Below are positions 1,697 to 42,848 of a stretch of DNA of 42,848 bases, one piece after another. Made by a program: the position numbers and the translations under genes. The notes under the pieces are model-generated. The model saw nothing but the letters and a program-made list of their open reading frames with translations. It did not search any database and was not told the origin of the DNA. This stretch comes from an uncultured Clostridia bacterium (lineage in GTDB: Bacteria > Bacillota > Clostridia > Lachnospirales > CAG-274): positions 1 through 42,848 of the forward strand of contig CANRPW010000021.1 in assembly GCA_947632615.1 (NCBI GenBank), written 5' to 3'. Position 1 is the stretch's first letter. The number at the start of each line of letters is the position of its first letter.

Positions 1697-1869
1697 GCTC
1701 GGTCATAACAAACGGGTGCTTGGCTTTGCCAAGCACCCGTTTGTTATGACCGACCCGCGGGGCAAGAAGCAAAAGAGGGCGGCTTCGCCGCCCTCTTTTG
1801 CTTCTTGCCCCGCGGGTCGGTCGCCCGGTTCGATATCGCTCACAGCGATATCGAACCGGGCGACCGAGC
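1697..1869. repeat. Cloverleaf element 1 (three hairpins plus closing stem)
   Basis: Closing stem GCTCGG (1697-1702) with CCGAGC (1864-1869). Arm 1: 1701-1724 with 1728-1751, 24 bp, loop TTT, tip TTGGC. Arm 2: 1751-1783 with 1787-1819, 33 bp, loop TTC, base CGACCCGCGGGG. Arm 3: 1819-1840 with 1844-1865, 22 bp, loop CAC, tip ATATCGCT. All pairs are Watson-Crick. The arm bases share GGTC/GACC, so the four-way junction could branch-migrate. It contains no plausible gene. First of a tandem triplet between convergent thiC and the PfkB kinase. Confidence 0.9.
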
Positions 1870-1931
1870 GATTATAAAGCACATAATTTGATAAAGTTAT
1901 TTTAACAAACAAAAGAATAGGAAGTATTTAA

Positions 1932-2106
1932 TGCACAGGCATACCAACGGAATGATTGGCAAAGCCAATCATTCCGTTGGTATGCCTGTGCCGTGGGGGA
2001 AAATCAGCCAAGGGGCGGCTTTGCCGCCCCTTGGCTGATTTTCCCCCACGGCGCGGGCTTTTAACTCGATATCGCTGTAAGCGATATCGAGTTAAAAGCC
2101 CGCGCA
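1932..2106. repeat. Cloverleaf element 2
   Basis: Same architecture as element 1 with different sequence. Arm 1: 1933-1960 with 1964-1991, 28 bp, loop AAA, tip ATTGGC. Arm 2: 1990-2019 with 2023-2052, 30 bp, loop TTT. Arm 3: 2051-2076 with 2080-2105, 26 bp, loop GTA, tip ATATCGCT. The closing stem is weak here (TGC 1932-1934 with GCA 2104-2106). All three arms are perfect. It is separated from element 1 by 62 nt of AT-rich sequence. Confidence 0.9.
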
Positions 2107-2143
2107 ATCATCAAAAATTTTAATTTTAATATGGAGTATTTTT

Positions 2144-2324
2144 TTTGCTCGGGTAGCACAAAGGGGAGTTTGGCTTTGCCAAACTCCCCTTTGTGCTACC
2201 CGAGCCGCGGGGGCAAAATGCCAAAGAGGGCAGCTTCGCTGCCCTCTTTGGCATTTTGCCCCCGCGGGTCGGTCATCAGGCTCGATATCGCTATAAGCGA
2301 TATCGAGCCTGATGACCGAGCAAA
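2144..2324. repeat. Cloverleaf element 3
   Basis: Closing stem TTTGCTCGG (2144-2152) with CCGAGCAAA (2316-2324), the longest in the set. Arm 1: 2147-2174 with 2178-2205, 28 bp, loop TTT, tip TTTGGC. Arm 2: 2205-2234 with 2238-2267, 30 bp, loop TTC, base CCGCGG. Arm 3: 2270-2292 with 2296-2318, 23 bp, loop ATA, tip ATATCGCT. Arms 1 and 3 compete with the closing stem for GCTCGG/CCGAGC, so alternative folds exist. Confidence 0.9.
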
Positions 2325-2330
2325 CCTAAA

Positions 2331-2361
2331 AAGCTCCCCAACAAAGCCTGTTGGGGAGCTT
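2331..2361 (-). terminator. Intrinsic terminator of the PfkB kinase
   Basis: AAGCTCCCCAACA (2331-2343) pairs with TGTTGGGGAGCTT (2349-2361), 13 bp with a 5-nt loop. Reading leftward it is followed by a short T run (TTTTTAGG). It begins 4 nt past the kinase stop codon. It is clearly different from the neighbouring GC-rich element 3. Confidence 0.85.
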
Positions 2362-2365
2362 GATA

Positions 2366-3409
2366 TTATCTGTTCATTTCGGACTGAGGTCCTGTTGATT
2401 TATGATTTTCTATTACGCCGTTGATCTCTTCAAGTGAAGAACGAGGCATATCTCCGTAAACAGTATTTTTAACTGCCGACATAGCATCGCCATATTCTAC
2501 AGCAGCCTGAATATTGCCCTTCTTAAGTATAGCATACAGTGCTCCGCCTACAAAAGCATCGCCTGAACCTATACGGTCTACAACCTCTATTTCCTTATAA
2601 TGATCTTCTTCATAGAATTTGCCGTCGAAATAGATCTTGCAGCCGAAATTATGTCTTGTGGGGCTGATAGCAATACGGCGTGTAGTTGCTACTATCTTGC
2701 AGCCGTATTCATCGGAATAGCTCTTCATAATTTCTTCAAGAGTACCTGTCTTCTGCATCATTCTTCTTGATGTTTCTTCCGATACAAAAAGAACATCTAC
2801 ATATGGAAGGAGCTTTACTATTGTTTCTCTTGCTTCTTCTTCGCTCCAGAGTGTTGCTCTGTAGTTAAAGTCGAAGGAAACAGCAGCGCCGTTCTTTTTA
2901 AATTCCTTTATCATTTTGAGTGTGGTTTCTCTAAGACTGGGAGCAAGAGCAAGGGTAATACCGCTTACATGGAAAAGTCTTGTATTGCGGTAAACCTCAG
3001 GGTCTATTTCGTCAAATGTAATGGTTGTGAATGATGAATTTGCTCTATCATAAACAACCGAAGATTTACGAGGATATGCTCCTGACTCATAATAATAAAC
3101 ACCAAGACGCTTTTGCGGTGATTTATCAAAAACCACATATCTGTCCGTTACAGCGCCATATCTTATGTTATACTGTATGAAACGTCCTATTTTATTGTCA
3201 GGCAGCTTTGTTATGATGGCTGTTTTTGCGCCGAGATATGCTGCGCCGGAAGCCACATTAAGCTCTGAACCGCCTGCATTTTTGTCGAAGACCTCGCCAT
3301 AGGAGATCTTTTCTTTATCAGGTGCAGAAAGTCTTAACATAACCTCACCAAAGCTTACGAGGTCAAAACGTCTGCCTCTGCCATTAGGAATAAAATCTTT
3401 TATCTCCAT
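2366..3409 (-). CDS. PfkB/ribokinase-family sugar kinase, probably 2-keto-3-deoxygluconate kinase
   Basis: A 347-aa carbohydrate kinase. The N-terminal GEVMLRLS and NAGGSELNVASGAAYLG are the substrate-side motifs of the family. The C-terminal DRIGSGDAFVGG (about 279-289) holds the anion hole and catalytic base D284. The RLSAP start and DFNYRATLW segment resemble KdgK, which phosphorylates KDG from pectin or uronate breakdown. No uronate genes are adjacent, so the substrate is inferred and fructokinase is an alternative. ATG 3409 follows AGAGGAGG. It is monocistronic, with its own promoter and terminator. Confidence 0.85.
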   Translation of the reverse strand: MEIKDFIPNGRGRRFDLVSFGEVMLRLSAPDKEKISYGEVFDKNAGGSELNVASGAAYLGAKTAIITKLPDNKIGRFIQYNIRYGAVTDRYVVFDKSPQKRLGVYYYESGAYPRKSSVVYDRANSSFTTITFDEIDPEVYRNTRLFHVSGITLALAPSLRETTLKMIKEFKKNGAAVSFDFNYRATLWSEEEARETIVKLLPYVDVLFVSEETSRRMMQKTGTLEEIMKSYSDEYGCKIVATTRRIAISPTRHNFGCKIYFDGKFYEEDHYKEIEVVDRIGSGDAFVGGALYAILKKGNIQAAVEYGDAMSAVKNTVYGDMPRSSLEEINGVIENHKSTGPQSEMNR

Positions 3410-3450
3410 AAATATACCTCCTCTTTATTTATTGTAGTACACTTTAGTTA

Positions 3451-3479
3451 ATTATAACATCCGAGCAAATAAATTGCAA
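3451..3479 (-). promoter_or_regulatory. Promoter of the PfkB kinase
   Basis: On the minus strand TTGCAA (3474-3479), 17 nt, TATAAT (3451-3456). It lies in the 146-nt gap between lepA and the kinase. No terminator for lepA is visible in that gap. Confidence 0.7.
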
Positions 3480-3555
3480 GTTAATTTAGGTTATTTTGTA
3501 AAAATATTATCAACTATTTCCATTTTCTTTGTTAATAATATACGATTTTATAATA

Positions 3556-5370
3556 TTATTCGTCATCTAACTTAAGCACACTCATAAAAGCTGCCTGGGG
3601 CACATCTACATTTCCTACCTGGCGCATACGCTTTTTACCTTCCTTTTGCTTTTCAAGAAGCTTTTTCTTACGGGAGATATCGCCGCCGTAGCACTTTGCA
3701 AGCACGTCCTTTCTGTAGGCGCTTATGGTCTGTCTTGCAATAATTTTATTGCCTATTGCCGCCTGAAGAGGAATTTCAAATAAGTGTCTTGGTATCTCTT
3801 TTTTCAGTTTTTCAACTATTTTACGCCCTCTTTCTACGGCGCCTGACTCATGTACTATAAATGAAAGAGCGTCCACGGCTTCTCTGTTTACCAATATATC
3901 AAGCTTAACAAGCTTGCTTGGTTCATAGCCGTCAAGCTCGTAATCCAGCGAAGCATAGCCCCTTGTTCTGGACTTTAATACATCGAAAAAGTCGTATATT
4001 ATTTCATTAAGAGGCAGCCTATAGTGGAGCATAGCTCTTGTAGTTTCAAGATATTCCATACTTACATAAACCCCTCGTCTTTGCTGGCAAAGCTCCATAA
4101 CTGTACCTATATATTCTGTAGGAAGGAATATCTCAGCCTTTACCCATGGCTCTTCCATATGCTCTATAATCGTAGGGTCGGGAAAATCGTTGGGATTTGA
4201 CAATACCATTTTTGTGCCGTCGGTAAGGTATATGTGATAAATAACGCTTGGCGCTGTTGTCACAAGATCCAGATTATATTCTCTTTCAAGTCTTTCCTGT
4301 ATTATTTCTAAATGAAGAAGACCCAAAAAGCCGCATCTGAAGCCAAAGCCAAGCGCCACCGAGGTCTCCGGTTCAAACACAAGAGCGGCATCATTTAAGT
4401 TGAGTTTATCAAGCGCATCTCTTAAGTCTTGATATTTAGAGCCGTCTGCAGGGAATATACCGCAGTAGACCATTGACTGAACTTTTTTATAACCGGGAAG
4501 CATTTCCTTAACGGGGTTGTTTACCAATGTAATGGTATCGCCTATACGAGTGTCCTTAACATTCTTTATGCTGGCTGTAAGATAGCCAACATCTCCTGAC
4601 ATAAGTCCGTCGCAGGGTATAAAACGACCTGCTCCGAATACTCCCACCTCAACAACATCAAATTCTTTATTTGTCGCCATAAAGCGTATTCTGTCGCCTT
4701 TTTTGAGAGTGCCGTCAAAAACTCGCATAAACACTATAACACCTTTATAGCTGTCATATACACTGTCGAATATAAGTGCTTTCAGCGGAGCGTTTTCATC
4801 ACCCTCGGGAGGGGGCAAAAGCTCCGTTATTTTTTCAAATACATCTTCTATATTAATATTATTTTTTGCTGATATAAGAGGAGCTTCGGAGGTATCAAGG
4901 CCTATAATATCCTCTATCTCCTGCTTTACTCTCTCTGGTTCTGCACTTGGCAGGTCAATTTTGTTTATGACAGGCAAAACCTCGAGGTTATTGTCAAGTG
5001 CAAGATATACATTGGCAAGCGTCTGAGCTTCTACACCCTGGGCAGCATCCACCACAAGCACTGCGCCGTCACAGGCAGCAAGACTTCTTGAGACCTCGTA
5101 GTTAAAATCCACATGCCCGGGAGTGTCTATAAGGTTGAAGGTATACTCCTCCCCTGCGGCATTTGTGTATATAAGGCGGACAGCCTGACTTTTAATGGTT
5201 ATGCCTCTTTCTCTTTCAAGCTCCATATTGTCAAGAACCTGCTCCTGCATTTCTCTTTCAGTAAGCAGTCCGCATCTTTGTATGAGCCTGTCGGCAAGCG
5301 TGCTTTTACCGTGGTCTATATGGGCTATAATGCTGAAATTTCTTATATATTTTTGTCTGTCGGATGACAT
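3556..5370 (-). CDS. lepA: Elongation factor 4 (LepA), ribosome-associated GTPase
   Basis: A 604-aa translational GTPase that acts on stalled or mistranslocated ribosomes. AHIDHGKST (16-24) is the P-loop, DTPGHVDF the G3 motif and NKIDLP the G4 motif. The C-terminal LepA-specific region, with [19 protein letters not shown] and the basic [17 protein letters not shown], is complete and of normal length. The start follows GGAGGG. It lies 20 nt after cdaR and is probably the last gene of the cdaA-cdaR-lepA operon. That position is notable because glmM is the more familiar gene after cdaR. Confidence 0.97.
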
Positions 5371-5390
5371 AAATTTCCCTCCGCAATTTG

Positions 5391-6824
5391 TTATTCATTC
5401 GGGCTTTCCGGTGTCTGAACGGCACCCGCCTCTTGTGTGTCAGAGCCGTTATCGTTTGAAGTATTGTCAACATCGGAGCCTGTCGCAGAATTATTTGGCT
5501 GCTCGCTTTGAGTAGCATTTTGTGTGTTTTTGTCTGCCGTCTCACTCTGAGGAGTTTTCACAAGCTCTATCTGAGTTCTTATCCTTCCGCTTGATATAAC
5601 GCCCGGCGGCAGCACAGGTATAACGTCTACCGTATGCACGCCCTCTCCAAGACCTCCAAGGTCTATACTGCCGGTAATTGTGGCATTTTTAACCAAAGCT
5701 TCGCTGCCGTAGACCTCAAATGCAACATCACCGGGGCTATGAGCAAGCTGAAGACCTTGACCAAGCCCAATAACATTTATATTAGAGCCTTTGATATTGG
5801 CTACTGTTGTGCCCTCCTTCTCAAGGGTGACCGAAACGGTGACCTCGGCATTTTCAGCCGCCGGCTTGAGTCCTCTTGCCGCAAGTATTTCGTCTAAACC
5901 AACAACTGTGGTAAAGCTTTTGTTAGCTCCGCTGACATCTATGGGAAGAAGCTCTATAGGGTCTTCGCTTACGTTTTCTCTGTCGGAAACTACGCCTATT
6001 GTGTTGGGTGACACCGATACTTCAGCCACCTTATAGCCCGGCGCAGGCTCTCCTGTAGTACCGGGAGTATTAATTACTATTTCTCCCTCCTTACGCACAA
6101 CGGCGCTTACCTCTATGGCAGGACTAAGAACCTCAAAGTTATCGTTTGCCAAAACTCCTTCATCGGTATAGAGAACAGGTCTTACGTGAAGCACTCTTTC
6201 TCCGCTTATGGACGAAAGATCCACCGGAAGCCCGGCATAGCTTATGCTGTCGGCAAGTTTTTCCGGCCCTCTTACGGTTACTGTTTCAGCAGAAGGTATA
6301 AGCTCATCCCTCACATAGCCTTCTTCTATATCCTTTTCTATAACTACTCTTACAGGGACTTCAAACTGTGTCAGCCTGTCAAGCTCCACATTAAGCCCCG
6401 AAGGAGTATAGCCCACTATTTCATAAGCATTGCTGTAAACCGAAATGTTGGGTATAACAGAGGTGTAGAAGGGGTTTGACAGATCTTCATTATAATAGTC
6501 TGAAAACCTCCCAAGATCGATCGTTGCGCTGACACTGTTTTTACCTGAGGTCAATACATTCAGGTCGGCTCTTGTTGCCTTGACCCTTACACTTATGTTC
6601 TGATCCTTTATGCTGTCTAAATTTGTGCAGATAAGATTATTTTCCTTAAGCTGGTCTTCACCTGCCACGCTTACATTTATATTAAAAATATGTGTTTCCG
6701 CAGGGTTCAGCGTTCCCATAACCACAAACCAGACTATAAAGGCAGCTATAACAGAAAAAACCTTAAGTTTTAAATTTGTACTGAAAAAAATTTTTATCCT
6801 TGCTGTTATTTTATTTGCTTTCAT
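5391..6824 (-). CDS. cdaR: CdaR/YbbR-domain regulator of the diadenylate cyclase
   Basis: A 477-aa membrane-anchored extracytoplasmic protein. One hydrophobic segment (about 18-37, [20 protein letters not shown]) is followed by repeated YbbR domains, seen as recurring [17 protein letters not shown] and [17 protein letters not shown] units. The tail is a low-complexity S/T/N/Q-rich extension with [20 protein letters not shown], probably disordered and outside the cell. In Firmicutes CdaR binds CdaA and modulates c-di-AMP synthesis. Its start overlaps the end of cdaA by 14 nt, suggesting translational coupling. Confidence 0.93.
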
Positions 6825-7680
6825 TGTTGTTATGCAGTCCTTTCCACAAAGCCGAGAATGGCATATAACCGTTTTTATGCACAGGTGTGAGAATATCCAT
6901 AAGCTTCTGAGGCGTTAGGTTTTGGTTTATTCTTCCCTCGTGAGCTACAGATATTTTACCCGTTTCTTCCGATACGACTACAATGTAGGCATCAGAAACC
7001 TCACTTGCGCCAATGGCTGCTCTGTGTCTTGTTCCAAAATCGCTGTTAAGTACCGCCTGAGTAAGAGGCAGAATACAGGCTGCCGAAGCTATCCTGTTAT
7101 CTCTTATAATAACTGCGCCGTCATGAAGAGGCGTTTTGTTTACAAATATGTTGGTAAGAAGCTGACTTGACACCTCGGCATCTATAGTAACTCCCCTCTC
7201 TTCAAAATCTCCCAAAGGTACATCATTTTCTATTACTATCAATGCCCCTGTTTTTTCATTTGACATTCTTTTTACGGCATCTACTATTTCTGCCGCTGTT
7301 TTTTCACTAAGCTCCGCAAGACGTGTTTCAGAAGAAAATACCTTTGTAAACATACTTCCCTTTCCCAGATTTTCAAGAGCCTTTCTGAATTCCGGCTGGA
7401 AAAGGATTATAATTGCTATAATGCCTACGGAGAGCGTTTTTTCAATGATCCACGAAACAGCATATAAATTGAAAAGATTTGCAAACAGGCTTATTATGCC
7501 AAGAACTATTATGCCCTTAAGCAAAAACCACGCTCTTGTTTCTCTTACCCAGACTATTACCCAATATATTATTGCCGCAACAATTATTATGTCTAAAATA
7601 TCTGTTATTCTTATGTTTAAAATGCTTGAAATAGCAAAATTTGAAAATGCTTCATAAAAACTTTCCAAAATATAATTCAT
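6811..7680 (-). CDS. cdaA: Diadenylate cyclase CdaA (c-di-AMP synthase)
   Basis: A 289-aa membrane enzyme making cyclic di-AMP from two ATP, controlling osmolyte transport and wall homeostasis. Hydrophobic segments occupy roughly residues 20-95 (IIIVAAIIYWVIVWV, IIVLGIISLFANLF and GIIAIIILF). The DAC catalytic domain carries DGA (187-189) and RHR (218-220, in GTRHRAAIGASE). The frame extends to a TTG at 7695, but ATG 7680 is preceded by AGGTGA at 6 nt, so I use it. First gene of the cda operon, with its own promoter; element 4 separates it from divergent lon. Confidence 0.95.
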   Translation of the reverse strand: MNYILESFYEAFSNFAISSILNIRITDILDIIIVAAIIYWVIVWVRETRAWFLLKGIIVLGIISLFANLFNLYAVSWIIEKTLSVGIIAIIILFQPEFRKALENLGKGSMFTKVFSSETRLAELSEKTAAEIVDAVKRMSNEKTGALIVIENDVPLGDFEERGVTIDAEVSSQLLTNIFVNKTPLHDGAVIIRDNRIASAACILPLTQAVLNSDFGTRHRAAIGASEVSDAYIVVVSEETGKISVAHEGRINQNLTPQKLMDILTPVHKNGYMPFSALWKGLHNNNESK

Positions 7681-7718
7681 ATAATTCACCTGCAATTCAA
7701 TTATAAAATCCTATTATA

Positions 7719-7747
7719 ATTATAACACAAAAAAATAAACTTTTCAA
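7719..7747 (-). promoter_or_regulatory. Promoter of cdaA-cdaR-lepA
   Basis: On the minus strand TTGAAA (7742-7747), 17 nt, TATAAT (7719-7724), ending about 38 nt before the cdaA start. Confidence 0.75.
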
Positions 7748-7770
7748 TAAAAATTCCATTATAATTATTG

Positions 7771-7934
7771 TGGCTCCACCCTATTTTTCATAGCAAGTAT
7801 GAAAAATAGGGCGAACCAATGGGGGCCGAGGGCAGGGATGGGAGATGAGCTCATACGCCCTTGGGAAGCTAAAGCATCCCAAGGGCGTATGAGCTCATCT
7901 CCCCATCCCTGCCCTCGGCTTCGACGCCCCGGGG
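7771..7934. repeat. Hairpin element 4 (two-armed, partly degenerate)
   Basis: Small arm: CCCTATTTTTCATA (7779-7792) with its complement at 7798-7811, flanked by TGG/CCA. Large arm: 7825-7869 with 7874-7919, about 42 pairs, with a one-base bulge (GGG opposite CCCC) and one A-A mismatch near the tip, loop TAAA. A further GGGG/CCCC (7821-7824 with 7927-7930) surrounds it after a bulge. The third arm is absent, leaving only CCCCGGGG. The element lies between the divergent promoters of cdaA and lon, so neither promoter transcribes through it. Confidence 0.8.
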
Positions 7935-7960
7935 CTTGAGGCAAATATTTAATAAAGGGC

Positions 7961-7989
7961 TTGTAAGTTTTTTTAAAATTTGTTATTAT
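7961..7989 (+). promoter_or_regulatory. Promoter of lon-engB-nrdR
   Basis: TTGTAA (7961-7966), 17 nt, TATTAT (7984-7989). I see no CIRCE inverted repeat and no CtsR-type direct heptads nearby, so heat-shock control by those repressors is not supported. Confidence 0.6.
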
Positions 7990-13523: not shown

Positions 13524-13677
13524 CTGCCAGCCCCCGTCAGGAAAGCGGCGAGCAGAGAAAAAACGACCTGTGTGAAGCGTACTTGTTAGCTTCACACAGG
13601 TCGTTTTTTCTCTGCTCGCCGCCCCCATTGGTCGGACGTTAAAGTCGTTTTATAAAACGACTTTAACGTTCGGGCAG
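13524..13677. repeat. Hairpin element 5 (two-armed, with closing stem)
   Basis: Closing stem CTGCC (13524-13528) with GGCAG (13673-13677). Large arm: 13545-13578 with 13589-13622, 34 bp perfect, loop GTACTTGTTA. Small arm on the right: about 13632-13650 with 13655-13673, tipped by TATA and containing two G-T wobbles. The position of the other small arm holds an unpaired remnant, CCCCCGTCAGGAAA. The stop codon and last residues of the neighbouring gene (13663-13677) lie inside the element. Confidence 0.85.
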
Positions 13678-17338: not shown

Positions 17339-17515
17339 GCCAAATAAGGTTCCGCGCCCCACTTTGTGATCTCGAATGAGATCCCAAAGCGGGGCACGGG
17401 TCGAGGGGGCTGGGGAGAGGCTCACAAACACAAGCCGTGGGCGGACTCCGCCGCCCACGGCTTGTGTTTGTGAGCCTCTCCCCAGCCCCCTCGACCACTC
17501 CAGAACCGCTTTGGC
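17339..17515. repeat. Hairpin element 6 (two-armed, with closing stem)
   Basis: Closing stem GCCAAA-TAA-GGTTC (17339-17352) with GAACC-GC-TTTGGC (17503-17515). Small arm: 17356-17373 with 17378-17395, loop GAAT, with two mismatches (A-C and T-C). Large arm: 17399-17444 with 17451-17496, 46 bp perfect, loop ACTCCG. No third arm. It lies 37 nt past the stop of the second ABC gene, and no U-tract terminator is visible there. Confidence 0.88.
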
Positions 17516-22788: not shown

Positions 22789-22935
22789 GCGCAGCGAGGG
22801 CAGATGAGCGGACAGCAGCGATGACAAAGGCGACGTAGGAGTCTTTGTCATCGCTGCTGTCCGCTCATCTGCCCTCGCCCCCCTGGGTGCGGACTTTATT
22901 TGATTGTCGAATGACAATCAAAAAAGTTCGTGCGC
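22789..22935. repeat. Hairpin element 7 (two-armed, with wobble-paired small arm)
   Basis: Closing stem GCGCA (22789-22793) with TGCGC (22931-22935). Large arm: 22794-22829 with 22843-22878, 36 bp perfect, loop of 13 nt. Small arm on the right: TGATTGTC-GAAT-GACAATCA (22901-22920), continued outward through ACTTT/AAAGT with one bulged A and then GTGCGG paired to TTCGTGC through several G-T wobbles. It lies between convergent ybaK (25 nt) and metF (23 nt), both without U-tract terminators. Confidence 0.83.
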
Positions 22936-22958
22936 AACGTGTTTGTAAAGAATTGGTA

Positions 22959-23816: not shown

Positions 23817-23850
23817 ATTGCCATCATCGTCCTTTTTTATATTTGCCCAC

Positions 23851-23978
23851 GCCTTTCATAACCATCAAAGATGGTTATGAAAGGCGGAGCCGTGGGGCAG
23901 GATGCGAAGCGCCGAGGGGAAAAGATGCCCGTAGGGCATCTTTTCCCCTCGGCGCTTCGCATCCTGCCCCACGGCTCC
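23851..23978. repeat. Hairpin element 8 (two-armed, in the metF leader)
   Basis: Small arm: GCCTTTCATAACCATC (23851-23866) with its complement at 23870-23885, 16 bp perfect, loop AAA. Large arm: 23886-23930 with 23934-23978, 45 bp perfect, loop GTA. The two abut with no spacer. A remnant GCAGTCCGGTCGGTAACCC follows, where a third arm would be. It lies between the predicted metF promoter and the metF start codon. Confidence 0.88.
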
Positions 23979-27287: not shown

Positions 27288-27436
27288 AATTGCGCCGCAG
27301 CCAAAGCCCGCCGTAGGCGGGCTTTGGCTGCGGCGCGCCGGGGCGTGGGCGAGGGTAAGGAACAAGAGCCGAAGAGGGCGGGCAAGCCCGCCCCCTTCGG
27401 CTCTTGTTCCTTACCCTCGCCCACGCCCCGGCAATT
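27288..27436. repeat. Hairpin element 9 (two-armed, with closing stem)
   Basis: Closing stem AATTGC (27288-27293) with GCAATT (27431-27436). Small arm: 27292-27312 with 27316-27336, 21 bp perfect, loop GTA. Large arm: 27337-27383 with 27386-27432, 47 bp with one A-C mismatch, tip GGGC-AA-GCCC. It overlaps the tilS stop codon (27435-27437) by 2 nt. No third arm. Confidence 0.9.
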
Positions 27437-31173: not shown

Positions 31174-31366
31174 TAAGCCGGTATCGCTGGCCTCCCCGCC
31201 CTATGCCTTCAAGCCGTCTTTGACGGCTTGAAGGCATAGGGCGGGGAGGCGCGGGCGGGGGAGCGATGGGCAAAGCCATACTGCATACAGCTCCTGCGGG
31301 AGCTGTATGCAGTATGGCTTTGCCCATCGCTCCCCCGCCCACCTGCGCCGCAGTTATGTCGGCTTA
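31174..31366. repeat. Hairpin element 10 (two long arms, in the spoIIE leader)
   Basis: Closing stem TAAGCCG (31174-31180) with CGGCTTA (31360-31366). Arm 1: 31190-31218 with 31222-31250, 29 bp perfect, loop TTT. Arm 2: 31253-31294 with 31299-31340, 42 bp perfect, loop TGCG. A vestigial palindrome CTGCGCCGCAG (31343-31353) stands where a third arm would be. It begins 24 nt before the spoIIE start codon and would be transcribed from the promoter at 31391-31423. Confidence 0.9.
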
Positions 31367-32115: not shown

Positions 32116-32465
32116 CTGTATCTTGTGCTAAAAAAACTCATAATATTTTGTTTAAAATAACTATTTTTTACAATAAGGCAATTTTTCGTAACACTTTTTT
32201 AATAAAACAAAGTTTCGCATTTACTAAATACAGCCTCTTGTTGATAAAATTTGTCTGCATTTAGTCGTTTATTACAGTTTTATTACAAAGATTACAATTT
32301 GTTCAATATTGACAATTTTTAGCCTTAATTTTTGTGTAATTTTTTTCTCTACGCTTTTTAGTATAATTAATTTTATGTGACCGGGAGTGACATTATTAAA
32401 AAATAATGTGACCTTTTTAGAGCCTCCAAAACGGTAATATTTTCCAAAATATGAAGAATTGCCCC
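32116..32465. other. AT-rich gene-free stretch
   Basis: No gene is supported. It is very AT-rich. It holds a small hairpin, ACATTATT (32390-32397) with AATAATGT (32402-32409), followed by GACCTTTTTAG, which could be a weak rightward terminator. A TTGACA near 32310 and a TATAAT near 32362 are too far apart to be one promoter. I see nothing else definite. Confidence 0.4.
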
Positions 32466-32596
32466 GCCTTTTCAAACCATCATAGATGGTTTGAAAAGGC
32501 GAGCCGTCGAGGCGGGGGAAAGCGATGCAGGGAGCAAGGGGTGAGCTAAAGCTCTCCCCTTGCTCCCTGCATCGCTTTCCCCCGCCCCGACGGCTC
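32466..32596. repeat. Hairpin element 11 (two-armed)
   Basis: Small arm: GCCTTTTCAAACCATC (32466-32481) with its complement at 32485-32500, 16 bp perfect, loop ATA; it is close to the small arm of element 8. Large arm: 32501-32546 with 32551-32596, 46 bp with two mismatches (A-C at 32510 and T-T at 32542), loop TAAA inside GAGC/GCTC, the same tip as element 4. It overlaps the VanZ stop codon by 2 nt. Confidence 0.88.
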
Positions 32597-36496: not shown

Positions 36497-36520
36497 TTAT
36501 TACCTGCATATTAATTTCTC

Positions 36521-36695
36521 TTGCCCGGCATTTACATATAATATCGCGAAGCGATATTATATGTAAATGCCGACCCGTGGGGGAGCAGCCAAAAGGGAGC
36601 AGCTCCGCTGCTCCCTTTTGGCTGCTCCCCCACGGGTCGGCGTGCGGCTTCATATATTTGGCTTCACCAAATATATGAAGCCGCACGCCGAGCAA
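36521..36695. repeat. Cloverleaf element 12 (inverted orientation)
   Basis: Closing stem TTGC-C-CGG (36521-36528) with CCG-A-GCAA (36688-36695), one C-A mismatch. Arm 1: 36526-36547 with 36551-36572, 22 bp, loop GAA, tip ATATCGC. Arm 2: 36571-36603 with 36607-36639, 33 bp, loop TCC, base CGACCCGTGG. Arm 3: 36638-36661 with 36667-36690, 24 bp, tip TTTGG-CTTCA-CCAAA. Arm tips are swapped relative to elements 1-3. Confidence 0.9.
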
Positions 36696-36732
36696 CAAAA
36701 CCTGTTATATTCAGAAAGATATAAACTTTTTC

Positions 36733-36907
36733 TGCTCAACATTTTCTACAACATCGCTTTGCAATGTTGTAGAAAATGTTGACCTGCGGGGCAAGCCGCC
36801 CAAAAGGGGACAGCTCCGCTGTCCCCTTTTGGGCGGCTTGCCCCGCAGGTCGAGGGGGCGGCACACATATTTGGCTTTGCCAAATATGTGTGCCGCCCCC
36901 TCGAGCA
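36733..36907. repeat. Cloverleaf element 13 (inverted orientation)
   Basis: Closing stem TGCTC (36733-36737) with GAGCA (36903-36907). Arm 1: 36736-36757 with 36761-36782, 22 bp with one C-A mismatch near the tip, loop TTT. Arm 2: 36781-36814 with 36818-36851, 34 bp perfect, loop TCC. Arm 3: 36850-36875 with 36879-36904, 26 bp perfect, loop TTT, tip TTTGGC. Same size (175 bp) as element 12, 37 nt away. Confidence 0.9.
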
Positions 36908-36925
36908 ATAATTTATTCTTTATCC

Positions 36926-37101
36926 GCCCGACATTTTCATACAATATCGCAAATGCGATATTGTATGAAAATGCCGGGCCGCGGGGGCAAGCAGGCAAAA
37001 AGGGGCAGCGAAGCTGCCCCTTTTTGCCTGCTTGCCCCCGCGGGTCGGTGGGAAGGCTCATATATTTGGCAGAGCCAAATTTATGAGCCTTCCCACCGGG
37101 C
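36926..37101. repeat. Cloverleaf element 14 (inverted orientation)
   Basis: Closing stem GCCCG (36926-36930) with CGGGC (37097-37101). Arm 1: 36926-36951 with 36954-36979, 26 bp with one A-C mismatch, tip ATATCGCA. Arm 2: 36979-37009 with 37013-37043, 31 bp perfect, loop GAA, base CCGCGGGG. Arm 3: 37046-37070 with 37074-37098, 25 bp with one T-T mismatch, loop AGA, tip TTTGGC. It ends 32 nt before the tex stop codon. Confidence 0.9.
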
Positions 37102-37133
37102 AACAAATTCCCATATTAATGTTGCCGCCACTA

Positions 37134-39278
37134 TTAAATTTTCATAGTAAGTGAAATTCTTCCCTTTTGTTTATCCACAGATAATACCTTCACATCTACA
37201 ATATCCCCTAATTTAACAGCTTCAAGAGGGTGCTTTATAAATCTGTCACATATCTGAGATATATGCACAAGTCCATCCTGATGGACTCCAATATCCACAA
37301 AACAGCCAAAATCAATTACATTTCTTACTGTTCCTTTTAAAACCATTCCTTCTGTCAGGTCATCCATAGTAAGAACATCACTTTTAAGTATGGGCTTTGG
37401 CATTTCATCTCTGGGGTCTCTTCCGGGCTTTTCAAGCTCCTTTATAATGTCCGTAAGCGTTGGCACGCCTATGCCAAGCTCTTTCGCTGTCGCCTTTATA
37501 TTTATAAACTTACTTATATTTTTTACCTTGTTATGTCTTATATCGTCATCCGAGGCTTTTATCCTCTTAATAAGTTCCTTTGCAGCCTTATAAGACTCGG
37601 GGTGAACTCCCGTGTTGTCAAGTATTTCATCTCCATCGGTTATTCTTAAAAAGCCGGCGCACTGTTCGTAGGCTTTAGGTCCTAACTTGCTGACCTTCAA
37701 AAGCTCCTTACGGCTTTTAAACTTTCCGTTTTCCTCTCTGTAGGCTATTATGTTTTTAGAGACCGTGGAATTTATCCCTGCAACATAAGAAAGCAGGGAT
37801 GGTGAAGCTGTATTAAGGTCAACACCAACATTGTTTACACAGCTTTCCACAACGCCGCCAAGAGCCTCATCAAGATGCTTTTTGTTCATATCGTGCTGAT
37901 ATTGTCCTATGCCTATACTTTTAGGGTCTATCTTCACAAGCTCCGCAAGAGGATCCTGCAAGCGCCTTGCAAGAGATACCGCCGAACGCAGAGCTACATC
38001 AAACTCGGGAAATTCCTCCGCACCAAGCTTAGACGCCGAATAAACGGAAGCCCCTGCCTCGTTTACTATGGCATAAAACAGATCCTTTTTGCCAAGCTCC
38101 TTTATTATATCCACAGCAAAAGCCTCTGTTTCTCTCGATGCCGTGCCGTTGCCTATTGCCACTATATCTACATTATATTTTTCAATTTTTTCCTTTACGA
38201 TCTGTCTTGATGCTGCTATGCGGCTTTCGGAATGAGGCTTTGTGCAGTAAATTACTCCCGTTGACAAAACCTTTCCCGTACTGTCTACAATGGCAGTTTT
38301 ACAGCCTGTTCTATAGCCCGGGTCAAGAGCAAACACAGTCTTATCCTTAATAGGCGGCTGAAGCAGAAGCTGGCGCAAGTTTGCCTCAAAAACCTTTATT
38401 GCTCCATCCTCTGCCTTCTCCGTAAGCATATTTCTGATTTCTCTTTCAATAGAAGGTTCTATAAGCCTTTTGTAGGAGTCCTCTATTGTTTCCTTAAGCA
38501 CATCAGCCGTTTGAGAATTGTCTGCAATTATTTGCTTTTCCAAATAGCCTGTCACCTTTTCATAAGGAGCTTCAACGGAAACCTTTAAAAAGCCTTCCTT
38601 CTCGCCCCTGTTTATGGCAAGAATACGGTGTCCTGCGATTTTTCCAACAGGTTCGGTAAATTTATAATACATCTCATAAACCGACTGCTCCTCTTCATTG
38701 GCAGCAGTTGAATTTATAACACCGCCCTTAAGTGTCATATCTCTTATAGCAGCTCTGTAGTCGGCATTATCCGATATGATTTCGGCAATAATGTCCTTTG
38801 CGCCATCTATAGCCTCTTGAGAAGAATTTACTTCCTTTTCGGGATCAACATATTTTTCTGCCTCTTTTACAAGCTCTCCGCTTAAGCGCTGAAGCATAAT
38901 AAGGGTAGCCAGTCCTTCAAGCCCTTTTTCCTTTGCTATAGTCGCTCTGGTTCTTTTCTTAGGTCTGAAAGGACGGTAAACATCGTCTATTTCCGTGATA
39001 GTTTCTGCCTTGTCAAGAGCCGCCTCTATTTCCTCTGTAAGGTTTCCCTGCTCGGATATGAGCTTTCTTACAGTTTCCCTTTTTTCGTCTAAATTTCTCA
39101 GATATCCAAGGCGCTCGTAAAGCTCTCTTATAGCAATATCGTCAAGCTCTCCCGTCATTTCCTTTCTGTATCGGGCAATAAATGGTATTGTGTTTCCCTC
39201 ATCTATCAGCTTTACTGTGTTTTCCACCTGTCCTTTTCTGAGTCCAAGCTCGTCGCACAGCTTTTTAATAATATCCAT
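37134..39278 (-). CDS. tex: Tex-family RNA-binding protein
   Basis: A 714-aa nucleic-acid-binding protein. The N-terminal helical part has TIPFIARYRKEMTGELDD. An RNase H-like (YqgF) domain begins near VFALDPGYRTGCKTAI. Helix-hairpin-helix segments include ASPSLLSYVAGINSTVSKNI and FKSRKELLKVSKLGPKAYEQ. The C-terminal S1 domain (about 642-712) has GTVRNVIDFGCFVDIGVHQD. It is the bacterial relative of Spt6, linked to transcription and RNA metabolism. Last gene of the amidase-rdgB-yfcE-tex operon; no U-tract terminator follows, only the cloverleaf triplet. Confidence 0.95.
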   Translation of the reverse strand: MDIIKKLCDELGLRKGQVENTVKLIDEGNTIPFIARYRKEMTGELDDIAIRELYERLGYLRNLDEKRETVRKLISEQGNLTEEIEAALDKAETITEIDDVYRPFRPKKRTRATIAKEKGLEGLATLIMLQRLSGELVKEAEKYVDPEKEVNSSQEAIDGAKDIIAEIISDNADYRAAIRDMTLKGGVINSTAANEEEQSVYEMYYKFTEPVGKIAGHRILAINRGEKEGFLKVSVEAPYEKVTGYLEKQIIADNSQTADVLKETIEDSYKRLIEPSIEREIRNMLTEKAEDGAIKVFEANLRQLLLQPPIKDKTVFALDPGYRTGCKTAIVDSTGKVLSTGVIYCTKPHSESRIAASRQIVKEKIEKYNVDIVAIGNGTASRETEAFAVDIIKELGKKDLFYAIVNEAGASVYSASKLGAEEFPEFDVALRSAVSLARRLQDPLAELVKIDPKSIGIGQYQHDMNKKHLDEALGGVVESCVNNVGVDLNTASPSLLSYVAGINSTVSKNIIAYREENGKFKSRKELLKVSKLGPKAYEQCAGFLRITDGDEILDNTGVHPESYKAAKELIKRIKASDDDIRHNKVKNISKFINIKATAKELGIGVPTLTDIIKELEKPGRDPRDEMPKPILKSDVLTMDDLTEGMVLKGTVRNVIDFGCFVDIGVHQDGLVHISQICDRFIKHPLEAVKLGDIVDVKVLSVDKQKGRISLTMKI

Positions 39279-39294
39279 ATCTGAACCTTTCTTA

Positions 39295-39798
39295 TCATAA
39301 AATTATCTTATATTCATTTCCGAAAATGCCGTATATATTCATTTTGACACTCTCATGAGTTATGTCAAATATGCCGAAGGTCTTTGTTCTGCCCTGTCTT
39401 GGCAGGGCTATGCTTCCGGGATTGTATATTTTTACCCCTTCCTCTTCGTCGGAAACGGGACAGTGTGTATGCCCATACATAGCTATCTCGCACTCATTTT
39501 CAAGGGCAGCATATACAAGCCTTGATACGTCATATCTCACATCCAGCCTGTGTCCGTGGCACATAAATATTCTGTGGCCCTCTATTTGCGTGACTATATA
39601 CTCAGGTCCTCTTGCAAAATCACAGTTTCCCTTGACTGACCAATATATAAACCGTGGAAACATATGGCGAAGCCCTGCGACATCATCTATATGATCTCCC
39701 AAATGTATAACTCCGTCAAGCTCATTTTCAAAATGTGTCAATACGTTTTCGGCGGCATCCAGCCTTCTGTGAGTATCTGAGATAACAAGTATTTTCAT
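39295..39798 (-). CDS. YfcE/MJ0936-type metallophosphoesterase
   Basis: A 167-aa calcineurin-like phosphodiesterase. The metal-binding motifs are SDTHRRL, HLGDHIDD, VKGNCDF (family GNCD), FMCHGHR and MYGHTH, in order. The physiological substrate of the family is unsettled. It overlaps the end of rdgB by 4 nt (ATGA), giving translational coupling, and is 16 nt before tex. The rdgB-yfcE pairing is common in Firmicutes. Confidence 0.92.
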   Translation of the reverse strand: MKILVISDTHRRLDAAENVLTHFENELDGVIHLGDHIDDVAGLRHMFPRFIYWSVKGNCDFARGPEYIVTQIEGHRIFMCHGHRLDVRYDVSRLVYAALENECEIAMYGHTHCPVSDEEEGVKIYNPGSIALPRQGRTKTFGIFDITHESVKMNIYGIFGNEYKIIL

Positions 39799-40403
39799 AA
39801 GTTATCCCCAAACCTTTCAAGCAGTCTATCCTTCATTATAACAAGAGCCTTGCCTCTATGGCTTATTTTATTCTTTTCTTCCATAGTTATTTCTGCTGAT
39901 GTGCAGCCGTACTCAGGAAGGAAGAATATGGGGTCATAACCAAAACCGCCCTTTCCTGCGATCTTGTGACCGATTATGCCTTCCATGGTCGCCTGTGCAG
40001 TGATTATCTCCGGTTTTTCCTCACCGGGGACGGCAGCCGCTATGCAGCATACAAAGCGAGCGGTTCTCTTATCATCAGTCACTCCCTTAAGCTTATCAAG
40101 AATAGCCTGATTTTTTATGTCATATGAGGTATCGTGCCCCATAAATCTTGCAGAATGAACTCCCGGCTCTTTATTTAAAAAGTCAATTTCCAGTCCGGAA
40201 TCGTCCGCAAGAACTACCTCGCCTGTTTTTTCCATTATCTCCATAGCTTTTATAATGGCATTTTCCTCAAAGGTCTCTCCTGTTTCCTCGGCTTCGGCGC
40301 ATACCCCTGCCTCTTTCATAGAGATAACCTCAAAATAAGGAGATAAAACAGCCTTGATCTCTCTGAGCTTTCCCTCATTTGAAGTAGCAAAAATTATTTT
40401 CAT
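39795..40403 (-). CDS. rdgB: XTP/dITP diphosphatase (RdgB/HAM1)
   Basis: A 202-aa housecleaning enzyme that hydrolyses dITP, XTP and dXTP and so prevents mutagenic incorporation. IIFATSNEGKLREIK, the catalytic VLADDSGLEIDFL, PGVHSARF, GKGGFGYDPIFFLPEY and KNKISHRGKAL are the family blocks. Length and motif order are normal. It is 11 nt after the amidase gene and overlaps yfcE by 4 nt. Confidence 0.95.
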   Translation of the reverse strand: MKIIFATSNEGKLREIKAVLSPYFEVISMKEAGVCAEAEETGETFEENAIIKAMEIMEKTGEVVLADDSGLEIDFLNKEPGVHSARFMGHDTSYDIKNQAILDKLKGVTDDKRTARFVCCIAAAVPGEEKPEIITAQATMEGIIGHKIAGKGGFGYDPIFFLPEYGCTSAEITMEEKNKISHRGKALVIMKDRLLERFGDNL

Positions 40404-40414
40404 ATTCTTCTCCT

Positions 40415-42607
40415 TTAAATTACCTCTCTTACGGCATCATATATAGCCTTAGCCACAAGCTGCTGATAGCTGTCGGAGCCCATATTTGCAGCCTCTGTGG
40501 GATTTGATATAAAACCGACCTCTATAAGCGTAGCAGGATTATTATTTTCTCTGAGCACATGAAGATCCTTTGTATGTACACCTCTGCCATATGCGCCTGT
40601 ATATTCTATAAGCTTATTATAAACTGCATTGGCAAGAACAGAGCTTGAAAGTCCGTTTTCATCTGTATTTTCATACTGCCAATATACCTCTATGCCGTTT
40701 GCGCTTGTATTTCCCGCTACTGCATTTATATGAACGGAAATAAACGGGCAGTCTACAAAATTACCGAAATTGGAACGATCATTAAGCGTAGGATATGTGT
40801 CGGTTGTTCTGGTATAATATACCTTATATTTTGTGTCTTTATCAAAGAGAGCTTTCAGCTTAAGCACTATGTCAAGTGTAAGATCCTTCTCTACAAGTCC
40901 GTTGCCTGAAGCTCCGGGGTCGCTTCCGCCGTGACCCGCATCTATTACAAGTATCTTGTCATAGATAGCATGTATATCAACACACTTAATATATATATTG
41001 CTGCCGTCCTCTGTTATCTGAAAATTACAAAGCTTCTTTTCATTAAAAGTAAGAATAGTGTTTCCGTCTGAATAAGAAACATCTATAGAGCTTATTCTTT
41101 CAGAACCGTCATAAGGTATGTTTCCTGTACCAAGTGAAGCCGTATAGTTGCCTGGTATGCTTATTGTGTATTTTCTGTTTTCAAAATTATCATCGGTAAG
41201 TATTGAATTAACATTTACCTTGGTGCCATTCTTTTTAATGGTTATAGTGTCGTTTTTGCTATCAGCCGATATGCTTAAAGAATTCTTATCATATATAGTG
41301 ATACCTGCGCTGTTGGAATAAACACTGGTTCTGTATTGTGCCTCACCCTTAAGAGCAAAGGTGATAACAGTGTCCTTTCCGAAATATGATATATCCGCCG
41401 TGTTTACAAGATAACCGTTTCTTCTCAATGTCTGCTCGGGGGCACTGAGTCTTGTGTTTGCAAATGTGACCTTAAGAGTCGTGCCGTTGTTTTGTACAAC
41501 AGGCGCGGTAAGAGCCTCGCCTGATACTGTAAATGTATCACTTGCTGCGTCGCTTGTCAGATTGTAGTTATTGATAAGAGCAGTTGGGAAATAGATATAT
41601 AAGCTGCATCTGTCAGCGCTTAATTTGCAGGTGAAGCTGCTGTCTTTAATATCTATAGCTATTCTGGTTATGCTTTGTCCGTTTTCGCTTCTTTCGCCCA
41701 CTCTTACCTCGCCAAACTGCGGTAAAGGATTGCTTGTTTTAACACGTCCTATAGATGAGCTTGCATTATAAATGTCATAATAAACTCTGTCGCTGCCAAC
41801 ACTTCCCTTTTCTACTCTGCTTATAGGAGAATTTGTCTTTATTCTGAGGAAGGTGTTGTCTGATGAAACCAACATATCCGTTATTTTGCATTGTGCATAG
41901 CTTGCGCTTGACAGCGCAGCAAGATCTGTAGGAAGTGAAGAGCTGTCCTTTGAAAGAGTTATTACTTTATAATCTTCAGTGGTAGTCTGTGTTGATTGTG
42001 TCTGAACAGCAGAAGCCTGTGTTGTGGGAGTCTGAGGAGCGGGAGCCTGTGTTGTGGGAACAGTAGTCTGCTCTACCTGAGCAGGCATCTGAGCAGCTGC
42101 TGCGGTGGTTGCCTCAGTTGCAGCAGCAATTTCGCCCTCGCTAATAAGAACCGTTCTTGTAGGCTTATCCCAGCCCACATTATAGCCAAAGGTCTCCGAA
42201 ACAAATCTGACAGGTATCATTGTTTTAGAATTAATGAGCTTTGCAGGAATTTCCATCTTTACTGCCTTATTATTATAATGAGCATCGGTGGAATTTATTT
42301 TAAGTATAAGCAGATTAGCGCCTTTAGCCACATAAACCTCTTCTCTGTCCTTGTTCCACGATACAGTAGCGCCTATCTTTTCAAAAACCTCCCTTGCCGG
42401 CACAAGCGTATAGCCGTTAAGTATGATTGGCGGCATAGGAAGACCTGTTAATTTTTGCCCGTTTACATTCAGAAAAACCTCTTCGGCAATATAATTATGG
42501 TCAGCCCAGTCATAATTAAGAGTGAGGTTGACATATTTATTTGTCGCAAAGGCAGTCACGCCGAATATGTTTATAAACAGCGTAAGCATTATTAATAACC
42601 TTTTCAT
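40415..42607 (-). CDS. Secreted N-acetylmuramoyl-L-alanine amidase with copper-amine-oxidase-like and AMIN domains
   Basis: A 730-aa exported wall hydrolase. The signal peptide is KRLLIMLTLFINIFGVTAFA, probably cut after residue 21. A copper amine oxidase N-like domain (about 45-160, with YTLVPAREVFEKIGATVSW and MIPVRFVSETFGYNVGWD) is followed by a T/Q/P-rich linker (about 165-212) and AMIN-type beta domains. The C-terminal Amidase_3 domain (about 550-730) has IDAGHGGSDPGA, VEKDLTLDI, FISVHINA and TLIEVGFISNP, giving the zinc ligands and catalytic glutamate. It cleaves the bond between MurNAc and the stem peptide. First gene of the operon. Confidence 0.93.
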   Translation of the reverse strand: MKRLLIMLTLFINIFGVTAFATNKYVNLTLNYDWADHNYIAEEVFLNVNGQKLTGLPMPPIILNGYTLVPAREVFEKIGATVSWNKDREEVYVAKGANLLILKINSTDAHYNNKAVKMEIPAKLINSKTMIPVRFVSETFGYNVGWDKPTRTVLISEGEIAAATEATTAAAAQMPAQVEQTTVPTTQAPAPQTPTTQASAVQTQSTQTTTEDYKVITLSKDSSSLPTDLAALSSASYAQCKITDMLVSSDNTFLRIKTNSPISRVEKGSVGSDRVYYDIYNASSSIGRVKTSNPLPQFGEVRVGERSENGQSITRIAIDIKDSSFTCKLSADRCSLYIYFPTALINNYNLTSDAASDTFTVSGEALTAPVVQNNGTTLKVTFANTRLSAPEQTLRRNGYLVNTADISYFGKDTVITFALKGEAQYRTSVYSNSAGITIYDKNSLSISADSKNDTITIKKNGTKVNVNSILTDDNFENRKYTISIPGNYTASLGTGNIPYDGSERISSIDVSYSDGNTILTFNEKKLCNFQITEDGSNIYIKCVDIHAIYDKILVIDAGHGGSDPGASGNGLVEKDLTLDIVLKLKALFDKDTKYKVYYTRTTDTYPTLNDRSNFGNFVDCPFISVHINAVAGNTSANGIEVYWQYENTDENGLSSSVLANAVYNKLIEYTGAYGRGVHTKDLHVLRENNNPATLIEVGFISNPTEAANMGSDSYQQLVAKAIYDAVREVI

Positions 42608-42786
42608 ATCTTTTTCTCCTTTTAAAACATTTATCGGGTCTTGATAAAGTTAATAAACCCCGTCTTTGATTTAATTTGTCAATACATTATAATTATAACA
42701 AATTATTGACCCTCTGTGTTTCATTATCGGAATTTTTAATAAATTTGTAACAAACCTGAAATAAAATAGTTCCGTAAAGAATTGCG
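42608..42786. other. Gene-free upstream region of the amidase operon
   Basis: AT-rich, with AAAAGGAG just before the amidase ATG. On the minus strand a TTGACA lies near 42680, but the nearest acceptable -10 (TTTATT) is 19 nt away, and two overlapping TATAAT further upstream lack a convincing -35. A promoter is surely here, but I cannot place it. Confidence 0.4.
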
Positions 42787-42848
42787 GCACAGCCCGAACA
42801 AACCGATGCAATCGGTTTGTTCGGGCTGTGCACAGGGCGGGTGGGTGG
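42787..42848. repeat. Hairpin element 15 (cut by the window edge)
   Basis: One complete arm: 42787-42807 with 42811-42831, 21 bp perfect, loop GCA, base GCACAGCC. It is followed by ACAGGGCGGGTGGGTGG, which matches the G-rich start of a second, larger arm as in the other elements. The rest is beyond the window. Confidence 0.75.

What the first reader, a model, noticed from the sequence alone, without database searches (positions are those of the whole stretch)
1697..42848. A dense family of giant intergenic hairpin and cloverleaf elements
Fifteen elements in 42.8 kb are built from inverted repeats with arms of about 16-47 bp and mostly 3-5 nt loops. Complete ones run from about 128 to 193 bp and all are intergenic, touching genes only at stop codons. 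Positions: 1697, 1932, 2144, 7771, 13524, 17339, 22789, 23851, 27288, 31174, 32466, 36521, 36733, 36926 and 42787. Palindromes this long with tiny loops are usually unstable in bacteria because SbcCD-type nucleases cut them, so this many intact copies need an explanation. I do not recognise them as REP/BIME, ERIC, BOX, RUP or Correia repeats, which are shorter or built differently. Their role could be mobile, structural or RNA-level.
Basis: partly seen in the sequence, partly recalled or inferred. Interest (0 to 1): 0.93.

Follow-up and report, generated by a model that had tools for sequence, protein, structure and literature searches.

The report
Mirror-evolving giant DNA hairpins
In the third of this uncultured Clostridia-type genome that was examined, more than 200 long DNA hairpins sit almost always between genes, and their two halves stay near-perfect mirror images even where the sequence differs between two species, likely because one half is copied onto the other; this gives a natural test of how palindromes survive in bacteria.

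Summary
The hairpins are real, beyond chance (0 in 20 shuffles) and genome-wide: 242 in 0.83 Mb of the host, about 480 per genome by extrapolation. They form doublets or three-arm units. The sister species G005 carries many. A model of the three-arm form gives only 7 matches in 3 of 7 other congeners and none in 32 family and order relatives.
Of 23 host clusters with collinear flanks, 18 have a hairpin in the same spacer of G005. Thirteen alignable orthologous hairpins, of 36 tried, differ by 52 substitutions (25 transversions) and 21 gaps, with only 3 mismatched pairs: changes are mirrored in both arms. G-U mispairs are no commoner than A-C.
I read them as gene-less palindromic DNA elements that spread before the two species split, were mostly inherited vertically, and are probably kept perfect by DNA-level arm-to-arm copying (template switching). 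SbcCD is intact. No reverse transcriptase was found in either genome, Y1 transposase genes do not correlate, and T-runs are depleted at element ends. The agent that spread them is unknown, and replacement by other copies is not excluded.

The parts
1691..1874 (-). three-arm element, first of an array of three (thiC-pfkB spacer)
   Evidence: model R1 188-bit class match, 185.7 bits
1927..2110 (-). three-arm element, second of the array
   Evidence: R1 175.3 bits
2141..2326 (-). three-arm element, third of the array
   Evidence: R1 188.3 bits
7771..7920 (.). doublet between cdaA and lon (divergent spacer); large hairpin 7840-7903 with 10-nt loop
13524..13674 (.). doublet: large hairpin 13545-13622, small 13636-13669
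17339..17510 (.). doublet with large hairpin 17399-17496; hairpins in the same spacer of G005
22789..22940 (.). doublet with large hairpin 22794-22878 (13-nt loop); G005 has a hairpin in the same spacer
23850..23978 (+). doublet upstream of the MTHFR-family gene; followed by the end motif
27292..27432 (+). doublet between ftsH and tilS
31190..31340 (+). doublet upstream of spoIIE; doublet in the same spacer of G005
32465..32596 (+). doublet; orthologous small hairpin in G005 differs by a mirrored gap and a mirrored substitution
36518..36699 (+). three-arm element, first of the array between the Cys/Met gene and tex; first arm identical in G005
   Evidence: R1 168.3 bits
36729..36912 (+). three-arm element, second of the array
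   Evidence: R1 161.8 bits
36921..37107 (+). three-arm element, third of the array
   Evidence: R1 164.5 bits
42787..42848 (.). element cut by the contig end; doublet in the same spacer of G005

Best explanation
These are palindromic DNA elements lying between genes, built from two or three long hairpins side by side, whose two arms change together between species and are likely kept identical by DNA copying from one arm to the other. Proposed working, step by step. (1) Shown: arms are about 99.4% complementary, and differences between sister species, including transversions and gaps, appear in both arms. (2) Inferred: when the strand is single during replication the hairpin snaps shut, helped by its tight loop, and the polymerase switches template so that one arm is rewritten from the other (quasipalindrome correction). 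(3) Inferred: the family was amplified before G000 and G005 split, as non-autonomous single-strand elements often ending in TTGC...GCAA; the agent is unknown and may be lost. (4) Seen at one site and suggested at another: copies are lost by deletion that leaves a scar. (5) Inferred: arms stay at or under about 55 bp because longer palindromes would be cut by SbcCD.
For: Near-perfect arms: 181 of 220 G000 hairpins with arms of 18 or more have no mismatch; 6788 of 6832 pairs are Watson-Crick. Mirrored change between species: 13 hairpins, 52 substitutions of which 25 transversions, 21 gaps of which 16 internal, 3 mismatched pairs; in the 9 that beat 99% of the background, 30 substitutions, 11 gaps, 2 mismatched pairs (recounted). 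The ortholog is the best of 132 G005 hairpins in 12 of 13 cases, one of them a tie. Fifteen three-arm copies: 290 of 1107 cells changed on both sides, 0 of 500 shuffles reach this. No wobble signature: 13 G-U against 21 A-C and 9 against 17, whereas 20 tRNAs have 32 G-U in 447 pairs. Triloops are RNA/TNY type in 97 of 103 (G000) and 52 of 62 (G005); in doublets GNA against TNC on the small-to-large strand is 18:3 and 14:1. Orientation does not follow transcription (8 same, 19 opposite in tandem spacers). One orthologous loop is inverted (gaa/ttc). Template switching is known to homogenise inverted-repeat arms and invert spacers (PMC8604942, abstract). SbcCD reading frames are intact; longest arm 55.
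Against: Only 13 of 36 orthologous hairpins align above background, so most arms say nothing. Loop inversion, the second hallmark of template switching, is seen in 1 of 13 pairs; 10 loops simply differ. In 4 of 13 cases another G000 copy is as close as, or closer than, the G005 ortholog, which fits replacement between copies. Loop polarity is weak in three-arm units (second-arm loops 7 GNA to 5 TNC, read), and ANA/TNT loops are not polar in G000 (5:6). Convergent enrichment could mean an RNA 3'-end role. Copying itself was not observed, and no agent of spread was found. Mirroring is inferred from each hairpin being near-perfect; right arms were not scored separately.
Confidence: 0.58

Rival explanations
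1. Whole-element replacement: perfect hairpins are overwritten now and then by other perfect copies of the family (gene conversion or re-insertion at the same spot), so both arms appear to change together.
For: In 4 of 13 cases another G000 copy is as close as or closer than the ortholog; the thiC-pfkB spacer holds three three-arm units in G000 but a doublet in G005; tips and words recur between copies.
Against: The ortholog is the best G005 match in 12 of 13 cases, and several orthologs differ by only a few mirrored changes. It also does not explain how copies with unlike arms are each near-perfect.
Confidence: 0.2
2. The hairpins are RNA structures (terminators or protectors of mRNA 3' ends) kept perfect by selection with compensatory changes.
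For: Enriched in convergent spacers: 21 of 42 against 35 of 168 tandem and 10 of 61 divergent.
Against: G-U pairs are not in excess over A-C, unlike tRNAs; transversions and gaps are mirrored; T-runs are depleted at the ends, 11 of 240 against 1899 of 18400; orientation does not follow transcription; 10 of 61 divergent spacers carry them.
Confidence: 0.13
3. A still active REPIN-like transposon mobilised by a Y1/RAYT transposase or another single-strand enzyme.
For: High copy number, tandem arrays, enriched end tetramer TTGC (33 of 238 cluster ends against 2.6% background), loop polarity; 5 G000-only and 2 G005-only clusters.
Against: Both G000 Y1 genes contain a stop and the G005 ones are broken or partial, while G008 has Y1 genes but no model match; no RVT_1 match in G000 or G005; 18 of 23 and 13 of 15 collinear clusters are shared.
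Confidence: 0.07
4. Assembly artefact: fold-back joins create false inverted repeats.
For: Several contigs start or end in hairpins and G005 contig C1 equals its own reverse complement over 131,780 bases, which is most likely such a join.
Against: Most hairpins lie inside contigs with unlike flanks on both sides, and the same spacers carry hairpins in a second genome with different arm sequences.
Confidence: 0.02

Closest known systems
REP / REPIN elements with RAYT transposases (PMC3116915, PMC3733652; abstracts and outlines seen)
   Same: Gene-less palindromic repeats in intergenic DNA, high copy, doublets, more often downstream of and between convergent genes, ssDNA hairpin model.
   Different: REPs are 20-40 bp with GTAG or CGTC tags; here arms reach 55 bp, no such tags are enriched, and no correlating Y1 gene was found.
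Double-hairpin elements, GC clusters and repetitive hairpin-forming elements of mitochondria (PMC4478555 outline; PMC2800124 and PMC5910586 passages; Allomyces paper seen only as a reference)
   Same: GC-rich single, double or triple hairpins dispersed in spacers, thought mobile, agent unknown.
   Different: Found in organelles; in sponges stems are conserved and loops vary (PMC2800124), whereas here stems vary strongly in a mirrored way and loop type is constrained.
Quasipalindrome template-switch mutagenesis (PMC8604942, abstract; PMC7202029, listing)
   Same: One arm rewritten from the other, perfecting the palindrome and sometimes inverting the loop.
   Different: Described there as a source of mutations at chance repeats; here it would maintain a genome-wide family.
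Actively maintained inverted repeats of Caenorhabditis (PMC1803023, abstract)
   Same: Inverted structure more conserved than sequence between species.
   Different: Gene-pair and whole-spacer inverted repeats of nematodes, not a short multi-copy bacterial family.
Intrinsic transcription terminators (recalled)
   Same: GC-rich hairpins near gene ends.
   Different: Far longer arms, two or three side by side, no T-tract, also in divergent spacers.

Membership tests
REP / REPIN | GTAG or CGTC tag beside the hairpin | tested here: not met
   5 and 2 of 238 cluster ends; background rates 1.1% and 1.3%
REP / REPIN | unit of about 20-40 bp | tested here: not met
   single hairpins span up to about 110 bp; three-arm units about 180 bp
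REP / REPIN | cognate RAYT/Y1 transposase in the genome | tested here: inconclusive
   Y1 genes in G000 carry a stop and in G005 are broken or partial; G008 has Y1 without model matches. RAYT versus IS200 type was not distinguished.
MITE | terminal inverted repeats | tested here: inconclusive
   TTGC enriched at 33 of 238 cluster ends; three-arm copies often end TTGC...GCAA
MITE | target-site duplication and a parent transposon | not tested
   flanks were only looked at by eye; no parent element was identified
Intrinsic terminator | T-run after the hairpin | tested here: not met
   TTTT within 10 nt at 11 of 240 ends against 1899 of 18400 controls
Structured RNA family (Rfam) | match to a curated model | tested here: not met
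   only the TPP riboswitch at 205-300 passes in the window
Mitochondrial-type double-hairpin / GC-cluster elements | dispersed GC-rich hairpin doublets in spacers | tested here: met
   38 of 77 clusters are doublets; works like them, no sequence kinship was tested
Quasipalindrome template switching | changes mirrored in both arms | tested here: met
   52 substitutions and 21 gaps against 3 mismatched pairs in 13 hairpins
Quasipalindrome template switching | spacer (loop) inversion | tested here: inconclusive
   1 inverted, 2 same, 10 different loops of 13
SbcCD-deficient host | sbcC/sbcD missing or broken | tested here: not met
   SbcD 403 aa and SbcC frame of 1065 codons with LSGGE signature at G000 C3; activity not testable here

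The most novel reading that the evidence does not exclude
A bacterial genetic element inherited by shape rather than by sequence: hundreds of chromosomal palindromes that rewrite one arm from the other at replication, so that fold, loop type and polarity persist while sequence turns over. A process known as a mutation hazard becomes the maintenance engine of a gene-less DNA family living under the SbcCD length limit.
Probability: 0.4. Interest if true: 0.9.

Novelty: new variant of a known kind. Interest (0 to 1): 0.8.

Why it matters
Long near-perfect palindromes are textbook instability elements in bacteria, yet here hundreds persist, many in the same spacers of two species, with SbcCD reading frames intact. 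If arm-to-arm copying maintains them, the genome is a natural experiment on template switching at many loci, where rate, strand bias and length limit could be measured. It also warns that near-perfect covariation without wobble pairs can come from DNA copying and need not mean a functional RNA. Such elements sit at contig ends and one fold-back contig, so families like this may be under-counted in short-read metagenome bins.

Tried and rejected
Loss of SbcCD: rejected. SbcD (403 aa) and an SbcC reading frame of 1065 codons with Walker A and LSGGE signature are present (motif names recalled).

Spread by reverse transcription: no RVT_1 match in the draft genomes G000 or G005 (also none in G002, G006, G007). 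Y1 transposase as driver: does not correlate.

Strict absence outside G000/G005: my first reading came from sampled stretches (one hairpin of arm 16 in 182 kb of the 7 other congeners; none in about 106 kb more from three of them) and from the end motif (0 in 144 other genomes). It had to be softened: model R1 matched in G001, G002 and G007. Inspection showed doublets in G001 and G007 and, at what reads as the same spacer, one hairpin with a truncated partner in G002. R1 scored only 64 candidates per genome and often hits both strands of one place, so its counts (61 in G000, 52 in G005) are not copy numbers.

Copy number: the first sample was partly chosen for hits, so I extrapolated from C1+C2 (64 hairpins in 260 kb) and 20 further stretches (66 in 400 kb), about 480 per genome. 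C1 and C2 had each shown a hit but were taken as the largest contigs. In one search the count of 115 for G005 includes the fold-back palindrome of contig C1, which also hid that contig's own hairpins; (C1 cut to one half) gives 132 at score 14 against 249 for G000 at the same score.

Sharing counts: the 18 shared clusters include three that face one G005 doublet (thiC-pfkB) and two that face one G005 spacer; two of the five G000-only clusters lie in one spacer. 97 of 120 G000 clusters had no homologous or collinear G005 stretch in the sample and were dropped.

In one search some sites were aligned in the wrong orientation for loops; arms are unaffected and loops are cited.

Hint not pursued to proof: some long stretches with accessory or mosaic content lack hairpins (C1:61-128 kb; C4:20-80 kb).

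The first tRNA control returned nothing because of a parsing slip and was redone; the program may admit only Watson-Crick and G-U pairs, so its zero A-C is not informative.

Literature searches. One search returned no papers; none of the titles and abstract starts listed by the others describes a bacterial family of this kind. Only open-licence PMC papers are covered.
Full report
OBSERVATION. The finding is correct. All 15 sites in the window hold long inverted repeats. A simple finder gives 29 hairpins of arm score 16 or more, and 20 dinucleotide shuffles give none even at score 14. Arms are 16-47 bp and loops mostly 2-4 nt. The genes around them are ordinary: thiC, lepA, cdaA, lon, ftsH, tilS, spoIIE, tex and others (Pfam), as in a sporulating Clostridia-type bacterium. 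The window is contig C21 of G000, a draft of 2.42 Mb in 65 contigs. Its nearest relative G005 (SpoIIE 80% identical) holds the contig recorded as uncultured Clostridia bacterium isolate Lapin-023__bin39. The host's own name was not shown.

EXTENT. In 834,734 bases of G000 (window) there are 242 hairpins of score 15 or more in 120 clusters, longest arm 55 bp, 203 without a mismatch (cluster total). In 660 kb not chosen for hits there are 130 of score 16 or more, about 480 per genome. At score 14, G000 gives 249 and G005 132, the latter in about 0.91 Mb of non-repeated sample. In the first sample 38 of 77 clusters are doublets, 20 single, 12 triple and 7 larger. Fifteen three-arm copies, 13 from G000 and 2 from G005, align as one family: ends often TTGC...GCAA, a first arm mostly tipped ATCGC, a second tipped GCGGC or GCAGC, a third mostly tipped TTGGC. 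An end motif of some doublets, CCGCAGTYYGGTCGG, has 25 exact copies in G000, 11 in G005 and 0 in 144 other genomes; the reversed control is 0 throughout.

DISTRIBUTION. In 182 kb from the seven other congeners one hairpin of arm 16 was found, and none in about 106 kb more from three of them. Twenty-six stretches from family and order relatives hold 21 scattered hairpins, 2 of them with arms of 24 or more. Model R1, built from the 15 copies, matches in G000 (61), G005 (52), G001 (2), G002 (3) and G007 (2), and in none of the other 36 of 41 genomes. In G001 and G007 these are doublets with arms of 19-25 bp, and in G002 one hairpin with a truncated partner in what reads as the same spacer. So the family appears older than the G000/G005 pair, but expansion is seen only there.

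AGE AND MODE OF CHANGE. Collinear flanks in the G005 sample were found for 23 of 120 G000 clusters; 18 have a hairpin in the same spacer. In reverse it is 13 of 15, with 53 of 68 dropped. Some clusters share one spacer (see Tried and rejected). At one G000-only site G005 keeps what looks like a scar, TTGCCGCCGCAG; at one G005-only site G000 keeps what looks like half an arm and the end motif. Of 36 hairpins at 19 cluster pairs, 13 align better than 95% of non-orthologous pairs and 9 better than 99%. The 13 differ by 52 substitutions (27 transitions, 25 transversions) and 21 gaps (16 internal), while their pairs hold only 3 mismatches, so the changes are mirrored. The ortholog is the best of 132 G005 hairpins in 12 of 13 cases; in 4 of 13 another G000 copy is as close or closer. 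The other 23 hairpins are too diverged to align.

DNA RATHER THAN RNA. Among the 15 three-arm copies 290 of 1107 cells changed on both sides; 0 of 500 shuffles reach this, and slid controls give 40-54. G-U cells number 9 and A-C cells 17. Across 220 G000 hairpins 13 pairs are G-U and 21 A-C of 6832; in 112 G005 hairpins 7 and 12. Twenty tRNAs from the G000 and G005 samples have 32 G-U among 447 pairs. The finder counts G-U as a mismatch but would still report long arms with 7% of them. Selection on RNA would be expected to pass through G-U, and mirrored transversions and gaps are hard for it. Triloops are RNA or TNY type in 97 of 103 cases in G000 and 52 of 62 in G005, against 25% by chance (p). 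GNA loops closed by C-G are known as unusually stable DNA mini-hairpins (recalled; one search gave only a listing). In doublets the GNA form lies on the small-to-large strand (18:3 in G000, 14:1 in G005), but ANA/TNT loops are not polar in G000 (5:6), and second-arm loops of three-arm copies are 7 GNA to 5 TNC (read). That strand does not follow transcription (8 same, 19 opposite). The polarity suggests that single-stranded DNA is, or was, the working form of the doublets.

LOCATION. With hairpin length subtracted and spacers of 60-500 nt, elements occur in 21 of 42 convergent, 35 of 168 tandem and 10 of 61 divergent spacers, and T-runs are under-represented at their ends, 11 of 240 against 1899 of 18400. 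I read this as avoidance of promoters rather than terminator function, but a role at transcript ends is not excluded.

MECHANISM. Template switching between inverted-repeat arms is known to homogenise them and to invert the spacer (PMC8604942, abstract). It explains near-perfect arms, mirrored transversions and gaps, and the one inverted loop. A survey notes symmetric insertions and deletions in a giant inverted repeat of Enterococcus plasmids (PMC13155455, passages), and nematode inverted repeats show structure more conserved than sequence (PMC1803023, abstract). SbcCD reading frames are intact and no arm exceeds 55 bp, which would fit a length ceiling set by cleavage; that longer palindromes are poorly tolerated in E. 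coli is recalled. What spread the family is unknown: no RVT_1 match, no correlating Y1 gene.

COMPARISON AND NOVELTY. In mode of life the elements resemble REPINs and mitochondrial double-hairpin or GC-cluster elements, but REP tags are absent, no working partner transposase was found, and stems rather than loops vary. Surveys of bacterial inverted repeats exist; one limited arms to 6-30 bp (PMC10434271, passages). None of the listings of my searches (one search was empty) showed a bacterial family of this kind. I file it as a new variant of gene-less palindromic elements, with a mode of evolution that would be new for such a bacterial family if confirmed.

Noticed in passing
window 205-300 (+): TPP riboswitch (RF00059) ahead of thiC, 64.1 bits.
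   Followed up: no
G005 contig C1 (L081, L141-L146): The 131,780-base contig equals its own reverse complement, centred on a short palindrome that resembles an element hairpin; most likely an assembly fold-back.
   Followed up: partly
window 1691-2326 and 36518-37107; L040:17841-18541: Three-arm elements occur in arrays of three at about 190-300 bp spacing, same orientation within each array, with AT-rich spacers.
   Followed up: partly
G000 C1:60.7-128 kb (L029-L032); G000 C4:20-80 kb (L186, L199, L204): Long stretches almost without hairpins, holding accessory content in C1 (SLH/pectinesterase protein, GH3, Csn2, conjugation coupling protein) and mosaic matches in C4. Elements may mark the older backbone.
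   Followed up: partly
L049 (G000 C16:17.7 kb): A second SbcD-like domain at the start of an unusually long reading frame (1311 aa open frame), with SbcC-like sequence following in the same frame.
   Followed up: no
G000 large hairpins: The 5' arms of large hairpins are mostly purine-rich (often 0.6-0.85), small ones are not; no explanation.
   Followed up: no
L123:9248-10560 (G005 C18): G005 carries an extra reading frame beside the elements between the Cys/Met gene and tex, absent from the window.
   Followed up: no
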